64,000 nucleotides of DNA, taken from IMG/VR virus record IMGVR_UViG_3300043411_002794, positions 1-64,000 of that record. One strand, given 5' to 3'. Source of the DNA: a virus. Under the pieces are notes generated by a model. The model was given only the letters and a program-made list of their open reading frames with translations, ran no database searches and was not told where the DNA came from. Positions 4,546-49,388 of this stretch are shown one piece after another (within the stretch, counting starts at the first letter, position 1; the number at the start of each line of letters is the position of its first letter). The translations under genes were made by a program, and so were the position numbers.

Positions 4546-7500
4546 CTACACAGTACCAGAAGGCCCCGGATCGATCATCTTCATTATGCTTTCGGACGCA
4601 CGCGGGATCGCTGCCCGCACCAGACCCATCCCGGCACCCATGCCCGCGGCCTGCACCCGCTCGCGGTCGATCGTCTTCTGGGGCAGCTCGCGGCCGTAGT
4701 ACGTGTCGAGCAGATGCCGCATCACTTCGTTCATGGCCAGGCCGCCGACGGCGCCGATGGCCGGCTGCACGATGAAGGGAGCAGCAGGGTGCGTGACGAG
4801 CTCGTGGAGCCCGGCTTCCTTTCCGATGGTGCGGCGAACAGTTTCTCCCACATAATCCGGCATCATGTCAGCAATGACTTTGCTGGCGCTGAGTTGGCCG
4901 GCAACATGTGGAAGTTGGTGCAAAATCGGAGACAGCCATGTCCCGTTACGACGCATTTGCGGGGCATAGTTCCAGTTGCCGAAAAAGCGACCGAGTTCCA
5001 GCGCTTTACCCAATGTCGAGTGCGCCCCTGCAAGATGCGCTGCTGTTTCATCCAACAACGGTTCTGCTGTCCTCGCGATAAACGAACGACTCCGCCTTGC
5101 CTTAGATGCGAGTCTGGCCACGAGTGGAAGGCCGGCAGGATCGGCATTGTTAATAAGCCCGTGCATTACTTCATGCCGCCGCGTATTGATCGCCGAAAGG
5201 CTTGGCGGCGTACGAACAACACCAAGACCCATACCCGGATAATACGTACCGTCGGATTGGCTTCCCTTCATCGCATAATCCACGTCAGAAGAACGTACCG
5301 ACGTGCGACCACCAACAGCCCGTAGGTTAAACCCGCTCGGCGTATCCGGGTTGCCGATCTTGCTCGGCCGTACCATCGTGAACGTGCGGCGACCAGCAAG
5401 CATCTTCGGGATACTGGCAGCTTCCTTTTCGGACTCGTCTGCCCCGGCCGGCACGCCTGCCAAGGTCTTGGCGGCCTGTAGGCTGCGCGTTCCCACCGCG
5501 CGCAGGGCATTACCGAAGCCCGCTTCCTTGTCCTGCTCGCCGTCGGCGATTATCGCACCGCCTTCGCACCGTGCGATTTTTTTAGCTGTCAGAGCTCCGG
5601 TACCCGAGACGTCCATCCCCAGGGCTTCAAGCAAGTTCTGGACCTGCGGCTGAGACAGAAAGTCAGGGCTCAGCGGTACTTGCGGCTCTTTCTTCCACCG
5701 CGGCAGGGGCTCGACGCCCGCCTGCTTGGTTGCCTTTTCCTCATCCTGTCGTGTCGTTTTCGGTTTTTTGGACTGTAGTCCGCGATAAAGTCCATACCCG
5801 CCCAGCGATGTCGCCGCGCCGCCGAGCCCCAGCTTGGCGACAAGCACAGCAAGCTCCCGTTGCGACGGTTGCGACGGTTGCGACGGTTGCGACGGTTGCG
5901 ACGTCGCAGACTGTCCGCTGCGAATAACTTGCGGACTAGCCGGCGTACGGCGGGGGGCGGCGATGCGCCGCACCGTCGGCACCACTTTCTTGACAGCCGC
6001 CACGGCAGGGGCAACCGCATCTGCGGTCGGCAGCAATTTCGCCGGGTTGTAAAACGCGTGATCGAAGACAACTCCGCGACCGCCATCATTGCTGGGCGGC
6101 ATCATCCCGTGCATAAAACTTCGCAGCAGGTTCTGATTTTGCGTGTAAGAGGCTTCAGTGGGATAAGCAGCACGCTCCGCATCATTCAGCGCAAAATCCC
6201 ACAAATCCGTCAACCGCTCTTTGCCGTACGGCGTGATCTTGTGGCCGTAGCCTCCCCCCAACAATGCCGCATAATCACCCTTCAAAAAATCAAGCGACCC
6301 GCGAGGCTCCACCGTCCGATAATTCCCAGACGGTACGCCTTGCCCCTTGGCGGCTGTGAACCACTGTTCCCCGACATCCTTAAAATAAGATTTCGCGTCA
6401 TCCACCGGCAGCCCAAATGAACGACGCAGCAGCTCACGACGCATGTCGGTTGTGTCGGCCTCATACCAGCCGTGCGTCGTCGACTTAGCGCCCGGGCTTG
6501 AATTCAACGCACTCTGTAGCACCTTCTCTGCATCGTACCCAAACGGGTCTACCCGATCGATTACGTGCTCAAGTGCCTTGTCGGCGTACGGGAAATGTCG
6601 TGCAATTCTGCCGGCCGTTTCAGCGATATCCGGACCGTATTGCGTACTGAGCACGGCGTCGGCCCCCATGGTGGCGAGCAGCCCTTGATGGGCAGTACGC
6701 ACGACATTACCTGCCAACTGGCGCGTGCGATCTAATACCCGTGGCGGCCGAACCGCGCCCGTCGGCAGTTGTGGTCGATGTAGCCCCGGGATGCGCGGAG
6801 CTACCAAGAACTTAGCGGCCCTCCCCGCTGCAATTTCCATGGCATTCGGGGGCTTTGCTGTCGGTTTGAGCTTGCTCGCCAACGACCGCAACTGCAGCTT
6901 GAAACCAGCCTGCTTCGTGACCGAGTGCTCGGCCGCCGTGTCCGGCGAATCGGACTTGGCTTCCATCATTTGGTAGATGCTCTGGGGCATCAGCCCCAGC
7001 GTGGCCGGCCAATCGATCGCTCCGGCCTTCTTCTCGGTCTTCTGGCACTCGTGGCACAGCTCGGCCCGCTTCTCCCGGATCAGCTTCCCGCCGTGGCATC
7101 GGCAACCTTCGATGCGATGGCCGCAGGATCCCAGCACGCAGCCGTGTCCCATTGTGAGACCGTCCATCTGGTCGTCGGTCAGCGGACCGTTGTACGACTC
7201 CCAGAGGGAGCGATCATTTGCCATTTTTTCCGTCTTCGGTTTTTCTGGTCGTAACCAGCGATAGAGTCCGTAACCACCGGCCGCGGCCGCTGCACCACCA
7301 AGCCCCCACTTTGCTGCAGTCGGCATGTCAGCCCAAAACTGCGACATACGAGACACTCCGGACGACGCTGGCGGTGAAACAACTGGCGGTGAAGCGGCGG
7401 TCGGCGTCGCAGCCGCGGCATCGCTAGTTGCTGGTACAGTCTGCGTCGCTACAGCCGCAGACGGCGGCAAATTACGCGGCGCACCGCGCTGATTCAACAA

Positions 7501-45591: not shown

Positions 45592-46281
45592 TTATCCTTT
45601 CGGGCTAGTCATTTCGCGCTGAATCTGCGTAGCTTCATCGCGAATAGGTTGCGGCAGCGTCGGTAGTAATCGGTCGTACGCAACGCGATTGAACAGGTAT
45701 TCCACGGCGGCCTGACGGAGAAAGTCCGCCGCCAATTCATGCAGACCAAACTCAGTTGCCATGCAGTACCGCAGCAGCGGTCCCGCCTGCACGCGGTGTC
45801 GGTCACAAATAGCCGTGACCTGAATGGCTCGATCCGTTTGGGCCGGATAGAGTCGTTTCAAAGCCCAGATCTCGGTCTGCACGACTTCCCGTTGTCGATG
45901 CCACGACTCGGCAATCTCTGAGCTGCGCTCGGCGGTGATCTGGTAATAGTGCGAAAGAATATCACCGTGTGTCAGCGTATTCGGGGCAGGCGGCGTACGC
46001 CCGCGACGAAGTGCAAACGCCGCCTGGATGTACACGATCGGATCGAGCTGGTGCTGCGTGAAGAAGTCGGCCAGCCGCGGCCAGATCGGCCGGTGGTTAC
46101 GACCAAACGAATCGCGACCGCCATCCCAGTGCGGGATCTCTTCATCGCCGTAGGTCAGCGCCGACGGACACGCACGACGATACTCGGCGCAGTAGATGCT
46201 CCGAATAAACGTCGGCAGTACCGCTTCGGTGATCTCTCCCAAACCTTCGCCGAGAGAGATTCCTCGTCTCGGGTCGGTCAT
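45592..46281 (-). CDS. hypothetical protein, possible helicase accessory (229 aa)
   Basis: Unrecognised helical protein. It lies between the SF2 helicase and DnaB-like helicase genes, its start overlapping the SF2 stop, and two bases before the DnaB-like start. A loader or accessory role for the helicase is a position-based guess only. Confidence 0.6.
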   Translation of the reverse strand: MTDPRRGISLGEGLGEITEAVLPTFIRSIYCAEYRRACPSALTYGDEEIPHWDGGRDSFGRNHRPIWPRLADFFTQHQLDPIVYIQAAFALRRGRTPPAPNTLTHGDILSHYYQITAERSSEIAESWHRQREVVQTEIWALKRLYPAQTDRAIQVTAICDRHRVQAGPLLRYCMATEFGLHELAADFLRQAAVEYLFNRVAYDRLLPTLPQPIRDEATQIQREMTSPKG

Positions 46282-47792
46282 AGGAAAGATCTCGTCATTT
46301 CGGCTTGGCCAATTTGTCGCTTACCCTGGTCCCAGTCCTGATCCCACTCCAGTTCCTTGTAGGTTCCATAGCGGGACTTGGAGCGACGCAAGAAGTCGTC
46401 GTCCCAGTAGTCGATCGTGTCGATCACCTGGCCGTACTCTTTGCCGTCGTGCAAACGAGAGGCACGACCAGGGCCCTGGGTATCCAGGATTTCCGAACTG
46501 CGGGCATCGGCCCGCACGACGGTCTGCAGGGCGGTGAAGTCGACGCCGGTCGCCCAGACGTCAGTGGCGATCACTCGCTTGAGCTGTTGCTGTTCGAACG
46601 CGAGCTGCATGTTGTAGCGCACTTCCGACGTCACATCGACGAAGTGCTGCGGCAACATTCCCGTCGCCTTGTAGTTGTTGAATTCCTCCGGCTTCATTTC
46701 CGCATAGCACAGCGCGAAGTCTTTCAACTCCTGCCACAGGTGCACGGCATGCTCAACGGTCTCGACCAACACGAGCACCTGCTCGTCGGCCGGGATCGTA
46801 CGAACCTCGTCGGCGATGATCCTGTTGCGGAACGCATTTCGCCAGATTCCCCATCGCTTCTGTGCCGTGTCCTTCTTGCCCTTCGCCGGATTCTTGTCCA
46901 TGCGAATCGGCAACCAACGTACGCGGATCGGAACGACCAACCCGAGACGCACGGCCTCGGCGTAGGACATCTCGAAAAGCAACGGGCCGAACAAACCTTC
47001 CAACCGGACTTCGGCTCCATCCATCCGACCGAACGGCGTGGCGGAGAACCCGAAGTTACGGCTAAACCGATAAATCTCGGCCAGCTTGTTGGCATAGTTG
47101 TCGGTCACCAGCTGGTGACATTCATCGCCAAAGAGGAAGTCGGCGTCGCCGTTGCTGCGATGCACGCTATCGGCCGTGATAACCATGACGCGCCCCCACT
47201 GGGCCTTTCCGCCGCCCAGCATCCCGACGCTCGGCAAGTACTTCCGCAGCTGCCGCATGATACGACTGGCCACGGCTACCTGCTTCACAACGATGTGGAT
47301 GTTGGCATACGGATAGCGAAGCGCCATGGCGCAGATCAGCGAGGTCTTACCGAAACCGGTCGGAGCCTTGATGACCCCGCCGCGGTGGCGATCCATCGTC
47401 TCCACGCACTCCTGCTGCCGTGCCCGGTACTGCAGCACCTGCTCGATGTTGTTGGCAAACAGCTGGAAGCGATTCGGTCGATGATGATCGGCCGTCAGAT
47501 CGAGCTCACGGACATGGTGCCCGAGCGAACGAAGCTTCTGTACGATCGACTGTGCGAAGCCGGCCGCACAAGTAAAGCGGCCTTCGTCCAAACGATAGAG
47601 CGTCCGTGTCTGCAGCGAGACGGGGCGGTAGACGCCCTCGGGGTTGGCGTACGCTGCGCGGCCGCGAAGAAAAGTTTTATGGGTGTAGGTCAGCCCTGGC
47701 GCCAGGGCCGAGACTATCTCGGGAGGAAGAGGATTCTTTCCGTCCGGCGAGACGTCGATGAGATTTGCGCTGCGACGAATAAGAATGTGCAT
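46278..47792 (-). CDS. superfamily 2 helicase (UvsW-like)
   Basis: A 504-residue SF2 ATPase. Seen: an N-terminal extension of about 120 residues, Walker A APTGFGKT (143-150), DECH box in LFGDECHQL (about 222-226), motif III FSATPF, and motif VI QGPGRASR with the arginine finger. This resembles UvsW-type phage helicases that remodel forks and Holliday junctions. ATG at 47792 preceded by GGTGG four bases upstream. A candidate plus-strand small RNA lies in the gap to the preceding gene. Confidence 0.88.
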   Translation of the reverse strand: MHILIRRSANLIDVSPDGKNPLPPEIVSALAPGLTYTHKTFLRGRAAYANPEGVYRPVSLQTRTLYRLDEGRFTCAAGFAQSIVQKLRSLGHHVRELDLTADHHRPNRFQLFANNIEQVLQYRARQQECVETMDRHRGGVIKAPTGFGKTSLICAMALRYPYANIHIVVKQVAVASRIMRQLRKYLPSVGMLGGGKAQWGRVMVITADSVHRSNGDADFLFGDECHQLVTDNYANKLAEIYRFSRNFGFSATPFGRMDGAEVRLEGLFGPLLFEMSYAEAVRLGLVVPIRVRWLPIRMDKNPAKGKKDTAQKRWGIWRNAFRNRIIADEVRTIPADEQVLVLVETVEHAVHLWQELKDFALCYAEMKPEEFNNYKATGMLPQHFVDVTSEVRYNMQLAFEQQQLKRVIATDVWATGVDFTALQTVVRADARSSEILDTQGPGRASRLHDGKEYGQVIDTIDYWDDDFLRRSKSRYGTYKELEWDQDWDQGKRQIGQAEMTRSFL

Positions 47793-47821
47793 ACGTCCAC
47801 CGTATTTCGTATCCGGAAGAC

Positions 47822-47850
47822 TTGCACACCCCAACAGCTTGCGCTATCAT
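47822..47850 (+). promoter_or_regulatory. candidate sigma-70-type promoter (plus strand)
   Basis: TTGCAC (47822-47827) and TATCAT (47845-47850) are separated by exactly 17 bases, the optimal spacing; the -10 matches five of six consensus positions and the -35 three. It points rightward, against all genes around it, and leads into a terminator about 75 bases away. Confidence 0.45.
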
Positions 47851-48407
47851 TGTGAAGTCGTTCCATTGGTGCCAGCCGATTGGAAGCCACAGGGGTCTTG
47901 CGATGCCGGTCGCAAGACCCCATTTTTTATGCGCTGTTCTTCCGAGAAGACTCGGCGTCCCAACGCGGTAATTTCAAACGTACCGTACTTCTCCCGTTTG
48001 TCGTGATAGGGCGAGAAGCCTCGCTCTTTCCCGATAAACGTCAACAGTCGATGGAACGCCGGCAGCTCCATCTCCTCGGGCAACTTAGCGTGCACTTGAA
48101 TCGTGCTGCCGGGCTCGAACTGCTCATGAAACACAAAGGCCTGCGGACCAGCGGCCGTCTTTCTGCGATACGACTGCGTGGACGGAACCCCGTGAATCAC
48201 GAGATCCCAAGCAACGCGATCGACCATCCCTTGACAACTGTTCGTCGTCATGGCGGCGTACCGCAATAACGACTCCCACTGCTCAGGAAGAAAGATGATT
48301 TGCCGCTGCGCGTTGCGGAGAAAGCGAAACCAAGCCCCTTTGCCGCGGCGCTCTCGCACAGTCCCTAAACAAGGGAACGTGAATTCGAGCGTAGCGGTGA
48401 CTTCCAT
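47847..48407 (-). CDS. conserved phage protein of unknown function (186 aa)
   Basis: Unrecognised by name. The segment FSPYHDKREKYGTFEI near residue 138, preceded by a helix, resembles a signature I recall from phage proteins of unknown function (G-x-S-P-x-x-x-x-x-x-Y-G-x-F). The C-terminal 30 residues (after ALGRR) have unusual composition and are encoded within the candidate plus-strand small RNA region, so the family-typical part may end earlier. Confidence 0.65.
   Translation of the reverse strand: MEVTATLEFTFPCLGTVRERRGKGAWFRFLRNAQRQIIFLPEQWESLLRYAAMTTNSCQGMVDRVAWDLVIHGVPSTQSYRRKTAAGPQAFVFHEQFEPGSTIQVHAKLPEEMELPAFHRLLTFIGKERGFSPYHDKREKYGTFEITALGRRVFSEEQRIKNGVLRPASQDPCGFQSAGTNGTTSQ
47857..47928 (+). 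ncRNA. candidate small RNA on the plus strand (about 72 nt)
   Basis: Predicted from a promoter-like sequence plus terminator. Stem 1 (47861-47869 with 47876-47885, 9 bp, one bulge, 6-base loop) is followed by a perfect 11-bp stem (47892-47902 with 47911-47921) and A plus six T. No open frame fits, so it would be a structured antisense or trans-acting RNA. It is complementary to the 3' end of the 186-residue gene's mRNA, just upstream of the SF2 helicase start. Not matched to any known family. Confidence 0.45.
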
Positions 48408-48458
48408 TTCTCAACTCCGAGCGCGGTCGGCCATCCTAGCTTCGTGCCATATGGCGTG

Positions 48459-49388
48459 TCAAACAGTAGTCGCGAACTCCGCGAGGTGCGACTTATAAGC
48501 CGTGAGCTCATCATCAGTTTTGAAGATTCTAGTCGGATCAAAAACATCAACCTGCTGTCGATTGAGTCCCTGCAGCCAGGTGTAATTCAGGAACGACAAG
48601 AACATTTGTGAGGCCCGCAGATCACCCCGCGCGCCGCGTCCGGCAGCATGCCAGATGCGCCACAAGAAATGCCCGGGGATTTGCATCTCAGCCGCGGAAG
48701 GCGGTTCCCGGTGCTGCCATGCTGCTAGCACGCAGAAGTTGCGTCGCGACTGCGCATCAATCACCAGCGACGTTGACGACGAAACCTGGGCCTGTTGCTG
48801 CACGTCGAGCCCCATGAACCGCCGCAACTTGTTGGTACGGTAAGGAGTATCCGAAGCAACATACCAACGCGGATCGCGAATCGCCGCCACCACGTGTGCG
48901 ACGAAGTAGGGATGCAGATCCTGCAGAAAACACAGCGAGGACCATGCCGGATGCCGTCGCAAGAGCTCGAGTCCCGTGGCGTCCAAGTCACCCGCATTTT
49001 CACGTAATCGTTTTGCCAGGGCATAGGTCACGTAATCTCCGGCAGTCATCGTATGCCAGCCGCCTAGTGCCGGCGGCAACGAACACTGCCGCATCCGAAA
49101 CAAAGCAATCTGCGGATTCTGCAGCTCGCGACGCGTGCTGCAAAGCAACGGACTAGCCACCTCAAAACGAGCCACCGACTGACCCAACTGCTGGTAGAGG
49201 CCTACCAGCAGGTCCACGTTGCCCTCGGTGCCGAGCAGACGAATACTGCGCGGCCGGGTGAATAACGGCCCAGTCACAAAATTGTGTGACGGCATACGAG
49301 ACGAACACGGCGACCGCGTACCGTCGGAGTACCACACGATGCCGTCCGGCGCCGTGTGAATTTTAAGCGTAAGTTCTTCGGCAATCAC
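48459..49388 (-). CDS. hypothetical protein (309 aa)
   Basis: Unrecognised alpha-helical protein rich in Arg and aromatic residues, located between the SbcC-like gene and the 186-residue gene. GTG start with a distant GGAG. No motif was recognised. Confidence 0.65.
   Translation of the reverse strand: MIAEELTLKIHTAPDGIVWYSDGTRSPCSSRMPSHNFVTGPLFTRPRSIRLLGTEGNVDLLVGLYQQLGQSVARFEVASPLLCSTRRELQNPQIALFRMRQCSLPPALGGWHTMTAGDYVTYALAKRLRENAGDLDATGLELLRRHPAWSSLCFLQDLHPYFVAHVVAAIRDPRWYVASDTPYRTNKLRRFMGLDVQQQAQVSSSTSLVIDAQSRRNFCVLAAWQHREPPSAAEMQIPGHFLWRIWHAAGRGARGDLRASQMFLSFLNYTWLQGLNRQQVDVFDPTRIFKTDDELTAYKSHLAEFATTV

What the first reader, a model, noticed from the sequence alone, without database searches (positions are those of the whole stretch)
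47822..47928. Plus-strand promoter-sRNA-terminator cassette hidden in the minus-strand operon
A sigma-70-like -35/-10 pair with exact 17-base spacing is followed about 40 bases later by a perfect 11-bp hairpin and six T, with a second stem between them. Everything around is transcribed the other way. The RNA would be antisense to the 3' end of the 186-residue gene, just upstream of the SF2 helicase start. An antisense or trans-acting phage RNA here would be new.
Basis: partly seen in the sequence, partly recalled or inferred. Interest (0 to 1): 0.72.

Follow-up and report, generated by a model that had tools for sequence, protein, structure and literature searches.

The report
Antisense RNA gene in phage replication operon
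A large, little-known phage carries what looks like a tiny gene for a ~70-base RNA, written backwards inside its DNA-replication operon at the spot where the next gene's start signal is folded shut; two distant relatives carry a matching arrangement at the same place, so it is probably a real switch of the kind known from phage lambda's OOP RNA, but nobody has yet shown that the RNA is made.

Summary
The cassette is real as sequence. On the + strand lie TTGCAC-17-TATCAT (47822-47850), then, 41 nt on, a perfect 12-bp hairpin (47892-47921) followed by ATTTTTT. The hairpin ranks 5th of 963 terminator-like sites in the 192-kb phage and the promoter 36th of 383,892 positions; their combination occurs once, and in none of 40 shuffled genomes. 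In a distant syntenic phage (G002, helicase 39% identical), the same junction carries, on the same strand, the 6th-best promoter-like site and the 5th-best terminator-like hairpin, 43 nt apart, with unrelated stem sequence; a third phage, a relative of G002, shares it. About 40 other family members lack it: there the two genes abut. Only cassette carriers have the helicase start locked in a strong hairpin. Best reading: a 70-80-nt cis-antisense RNA at the p186/helicase junction, acting like lambda OOP RNA. Transcription is not shown; the second stem is weak; no trans target stands out. By fold, the overlapped gene encodes a Cas7-like RAMP protein, an unexpected by-product.

The parts
47822..47827 (+). 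-35-like hexamer TTGCAC
   Evidence: 3 of 6 match consensus, 17-nt spacing
47845..47850 (+). -10-like hexamer TATCAT
   Evidence: 5 of 6 match; site ranks 36 of 383,892
47857..47928 (+). predicted antisense RNA, about 70 nt (start inferred 7 nt after the -10, end at the T run)
   Evidence: MFE -37.1, z -5.1 (mostly the terminator stem); inference for the ends
47861..47886 (+). weak upstream stem of the predicted RNA
   Evidence: z -1.65 on +, 0.17 on -; not conserved
47892..47921 (+). terminator-like hairpin, perfect 12-bp stem, 6-nt loop
   Evidence: 5th of 963 in the genome
47923..47928 (+). run of six T after the stem
47847..48407 (-). p186 gene (186 aa); its last ~25 codons overlap the cassette; Cas7-like RAMP fold predicted, tail 161-186 low confidence
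46278..47792 (-). SF2 (UvsW-like) helicase gene, 504 aa from ATG 47792
47782..47832 (-). mRNA hairpin holding the helicase ribosome-binding site and start codon
   Evidence: 18.0 kcal/mol to open, highest of 64 starts
48433..48462 (-). sigma-70-like promoter TTGACA-18-TAGGAT of the p186 gene, rank 2 in the genome

Best explanation
The + strand carries a small RNA gene with its own sigma-70-type promoter and intrinsic terminator. Its ~70-nt RNA is perfectly antisense to the 3' end of the p186 message, just ahead of the replication helicase gene on the same polycistronic mRNA. It most likely works in cis: it pairs with the p186/helicase junction of the mRNA and lowers expression across it, by RNase III cleavage of the duplex and/or by keeping upstream translation from opening the hairpin that locks the helicase start codon. 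Shown: the DNA elements, their joint rarity, their recurrence at the same junction in G002/L021, and the predicted locked helicase start in carriers only. Inferred: transcription, the ends of the RNA, pairing, RNase III, and the effect on helicase level. Confidence is about 0.6 that the RNA gene is real and about half that for this way of working.
For: Promoter rank 36/383,892 and terminator rank 5/963 in the phage; the pair occurs once, 0 of 40 shuffles. Out-of-sample: in G002 the syntenic + site TTGTCA-17-TACACT ranks 6 of 451,404 and the hairpin 5 of 1,091, distance 43 vs 41 nt; L021 keeps TTGTCA-17-TAAACT. Between G002 and L021, 30-nt windows over the promoter (80-87% identical) and the hairpin (83-93%) are conserved, the stretch between them less (63-67%). 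One closing stem pair changes on both sides between them (read from the alignment). The p186 tail under the cassette is unconserved and low-confidence. Helicase start opening cost 18.0, 17.7 and 27.3 kcal/mol in the three carriers against 5.2-12.6 in eight non-carriers; top 1 of 64 in this phage, top 2 of 101 in G002. A giant phage makes antisense RNAs (PMC4848604).
Against: No transcript data. The -35 is poor here (3/6), and non-carrier junctions contain promoter-like scores as high, so the promoter alone proves little. The T run is weak in G002 (TGCTTTTC) and L021 (TGCTTTCC). Only two independent lineages carry it; about 40 relatives do not. The phage encodes its own RNA polymerase, whose promoters are unknown, and the host is unknown. 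Stem sequences of the two lineages do not align, so common descent is not shown.
Confidence: 0.55

Rival explanations
1. The hairpin and its neighbours act on the minus-strand mRNA: junction structures that set mRNA processing or helicase translation. The + strand promoter and T run are incidental.
For: The stem is equally perfect on both strands here; the helicase start is locked in all carriers; the T run is weak in G002/L021; in G002/L021 a 25/26-codon sense ORF ends in an ATGA overlap with the helicase start.
Against: On the minus strand no T run follows the stem, and in G002 the minus stem has a mismatch where the + stem has a G-U pair. It does not predict a top-6 promoter on the + strand at the right distance in G002.
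Confidence: 0.22
2. A + strand terminator without its own small RNA: it stops stray antisense transcription before it reaches the p186 promoter at 48433-48462.
For: Strong unidirectional terminator; a rank-2 minus-strand promoter lies 500 nt beyond it.
Against: A promoter-like site sits 41 nt upstream here and 43 nt upstream in G002; no longer + strand unit is seen upstream of it.
Confidence: 0.13
3. Chance: a palindrome and a promoter look-alike.
Against: 0 of 80 shuffled genomes; recurrence at the same junction in G002.
Confidence: 0.05
4. A programmed -1 frameshift site in p186 on the minus strand (A AAA AAT followed by the stem).
For: Heptamer in frame, immediately before the stem; the -1 frame stays open past the helicase start.
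Against: No spacer between heptamer and stem; heptamer absent in G002 and L021.
Confidence: 0.02

Closest known systems
Phage lambda OOP RNA (pO-oop-tO)
   Same: Short RNA on the opposite strand with its own promoter and terminator; promoter next to the start of a replication gene; terminator inside the 3' end of the preceding gene (52 nt overlap with cII; PMC5869508).
   Different: No sequence relation was found (Rfam and BLAST); unrelated myovirus with its own RNA polymerase; target is a Cas7-like protein gene, not cII; helicase start locked in a hairpin; LexA control and RNase III cleavage not tested.
Plasmid R1 CopA/tap/repA antisense control
   Same: Antisense RNA upstream of a replication gene; in G002/L021 a short leader-like ORF (25/26 codons) runs through the hairpin that locks the helicase start, and the RNA would cover that ORF's start.
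   Different: In the window phage no such ORF ending at the helicase start exists; no sequence relation; CopA-type loop motifs not seen.
Antisense RNAs of giant phage phiR1-37
   Same: Antisense RNAs detected by RNA-seq in a giant phage (PMC4848604), one of them antisense to the 3' end of a gene.
   Different: Most are longer (about 100-400 nt) and without a described promoter-terminator cassette; no homology tested.

Membership tests
lambda OOP RNA | own promoter and intrinsic terminator on the strand opposite the operon | tested here: met
   (as sequence; activity not tested)
lambda OOP RNA | antisense to the 3' end of the gene before a replication gene | tested here: met
   p186 tail and SF2 helicase
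lambda OOP RNA | sequence or covariance-model homology | tested here: not met
   no credible match to any Rfam family; no BLAST match in phage records
lambda OOP RNA | RNase III-dependent cleavage of the target mRNA | not testable with these tools
   needs infected cells
CopA/tap/repA-type control | replication-gene start sequestered in a stable hairpin | tested here: met
   (prediction)
CopA/tap/repA-type control | leader ORF coupled to the replication gene and covered by the antisense RNA | tested here: inconclusive
   present in G002/L021; in the window only ORFs running past the helicase start
Guide RNA of a CRISPR/RAMP or TIGR-Tas system | repeat array or box C/D guide next to the effector | tested here: not met
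   no array; box C/D pattern at chance level
Rfam plasmid antisense RNA ctRNA_pGA1 | score above the gathering threshold | tested here: not met
   25.2 bits against 45 for the G002 locus; no match for the window

The most novel reading that the evidence does not exclude
The RNA is not (only) an antisense regulator but the partner RNA of the two RNA-binding-type proteins encoded beside it: p186 has a Cas7-like RAMP fold, and p309's weak best fold matches are RNA-guided RuvC-Nop proteins (IS621 recombinase, TIGR-TasR; E 0.025). That would be a phage-born ribonucleoprotein coupled to a helicase. Against it: about 40 relatives keep both proteins without the cassette at this place, and no guide array was found.
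Probability: 0.04. Interest if true: 0.93.

Novelty: new member of a known kind. Interest (0 to 1): 0.5.

Why it matters
Antisense RNAs at replication-gene junctions are known mainly from lambdoid phages and plasmids. An OOP-like unit in an unrelated large phage with its own RNA polymerase, present in two deep lineages and absent from a third where the same genes abut, would show that this control scheme has arisen or been lost repeatedly, and gives a natural with/without comparison in one gene order. The neighbouring Cas7-like RAMP gene, conserved in some 40 phages of this group and unnoticed by sequence searches, is a lead worth following in its own right.

Tried and rejected
Close relatives by helicase, p186 and polymerase peptides: none; the RNA polymerase and then the helicase alignment opened the family. 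Exact stem in viral contigs: one hit, apparently the terminator of a tRNA-like gene in an unrelated contig, taken as chance. Trans targets in both genomes: not above shuffled RNA. Bidirectional origin at the cassette: no GC-skew turn there. Frameshift site: not conserved. Known RNA family: none. TIGR or CRISPR guide: no array. Tree: this phage, G002's clade and the non-carriers branch near each other without resolution; one origin in carriers not rejected (p-AU 0.2). Named phages with p186 relatives: none. A first script for opening cost crashed and was redone.

Full report
The thing itself. On the + strand, TTGCAC (47822-47827), 17 bases, TATCAT (47845-47850), 41 bases, then GGGGTCTTGCGA-TGCCGG-TCGCAAGACCCC (47892-47921) and ATTTTTT.

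Setting. The window is part of a 192-kb virus record of about 60% G+C with most genes on the minus strand. Around the cassette the minus-strand order is SbcD-like, a 317-aa unknown, SbcC-like, p309, p186, [cassette], SF2 helicase, p229, DnaB-like helicase, a 471-aa ORF, DNA polymerase. The phage encodes a multisubunit RNA polymerase with an intein. The p186 gene has its own promoter-like site, TTGACA-18-TAGGAT, second best in the genome. The hairpin lies in the last codons of p186, whose tail past residue 161 is low-confidence in the structure prediction and unconserved.

Chance. A consensus count finds promoter-like sites only at the chance rate. A graded score over the whole genome ranks this site 36th of 383,892 positions. 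The hairpin with its T run ranks 5th of 963, while most strong ones sit on the gene strand. Promoter and terminator within 120 nt at these cut-offs: one in the real genome, none in 40 shuffles; one in G002, none in 40 shuffles. The cut-offs were set after seeing the sites. At looser cut-offs (promoter score at least 10, terminator in the top 60, within 300 nt) there are four pairs in this phage and two in G002, and the junction pair is among them in both. The promoter weights are an approximate E. coli sigma-70 matrix written from general knowledge.

Relatives. The RNA polymerase led to IMG/VR relatives at about 59% identity. G002 (226 kb) has the same gene order with a helicase 39% and p186 34% identical. 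At the same junction and strand it has TTGTCA-17-TACACT, 6th best of 451,404 positions, and a 14-bp hairpin 43 nt on, 5th of 1,091. This was a true prediction, since the place was fixed beforehand. L021, whose helicase is 79% identical to G002's, keeps both. Stem sequences of the window and G002 are unrelated. The G002 tail (TGCTTTTC) is a poor T run. About 40 other members (helicase 44-54% to the window) lack it: p186 ends within a few to some tens of bases of the helicase start, and their best hairpins there score at most 20.5 against 32-38.5 in carriers. Promoter-like scores at those junctions are as high as here, so the promoter alone is weak evidence. The polymerase tree does not resolve whether carriers share one origin.

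A second carrier trait. Only in the three carriers is the helicase start buried: 18.0, 17.7 and 27.3 kcal/mol to open, against 5.2-12.6 in eight non-carriers. It is the costliest of 64 starts in this phage and among the top two of 101 in G002. In G002 and L021 a sense ORF of 26 or 25 codons starts just inside the predicted RNA and stops in an ATGA overlap with the helicase start. Here the p186 stop itself overlaps an ATG at 47850.

Mechanism. The best-supported reading is a cis-antisense RNA acting at the p186/helicase junction. Lambda OOP is the closest parallel: opposite strand, promoter beside a replication gene, terminator in the 3' end of the preceding gene with 52 bases of overlap, RNase III-dependent (PMC5869508; PMC12197685). 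Plasmid R1 CopA, which limits RepA by blocking the tap leader peptide (PMC5883639), is the parallel for the locked start. A trans target was sought and not found. Transcription, processing and effect are inferred, not shown.

By-product. p186 has no sequence relatives in Pfam, PHROGs or PDB, but its model matches Cas7-like RAMP proteins (best E 2.7e-6, 99 chains below 1e-3, TM about 0.5) and a phage protein called a Cas-associated RAMP. p309's best matches are the IS621 recombinase and TIGR-TasR at E 0.025, TM 0.35-0.40: a lead only. No guide array is present in the window. TIGR-Tas systems are defined by such arrays (PMC12045711).

Verdict. A probable, ordinary-in-kind but well-placed antisense RNA gene in an unusual phage, supported by recurrence in a distant relative and lacking any transcript evidence.

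Noticed in passing
47850-48407 (minus), p186: Structure model matches Cas7-like RAMP proteins of type III, IV and VII CRISPR complexes; conserved next to the helicase in about 40 phages, no sequence-family hit.
   Followed up: partly
48459-49388 (minus), p309: Model pLDDT 92; best but weak fold matches are RNA-guided RuvC-Nop proteins IS621 and TIGR-TasR (E 0.025).
   Followed up: partly
L007:13277-19771 and L008:3-1850 (rest of the same genome): Phage-encoded RNA polymerase, with beta and beta' parts joined in one 1190-aa ORF and an intein with a LAGLIDADG domain.
   Followed up: partly
L022 3500-5000; L063, L069, L075-L077: Relatives whose helicase match is split; in L022 an intein sits in the helicase near the Walker A motif, the others were not read in detail.
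   Followed up: no
L051 4407-5505, L063 2296-4044: Insertions of about 1.1 and 1.7 kb between p309 and p186 in two relatives, content not examined.
   Followed up: no
L017 4658-4738 (minus) and the matching stretch of L021: Small ORF MPKEVYRAQIALTSPFAQFVTAEGEQ / MPLEVYRAQTALTSPLAQLAAGGAR between p186 and helicase, length differs by one codon, ATGA overlap kept.
   Followed up: partly
L003:1726-3198: Nicotinamide phosphoribosyltransferase gene (phrog_448, E 2e-151).
   Followed up: no
5859-5903: Five perfect copies of the 9-mer GTTGCGACG inside a long minus-strand ORF.
   Followed up: no
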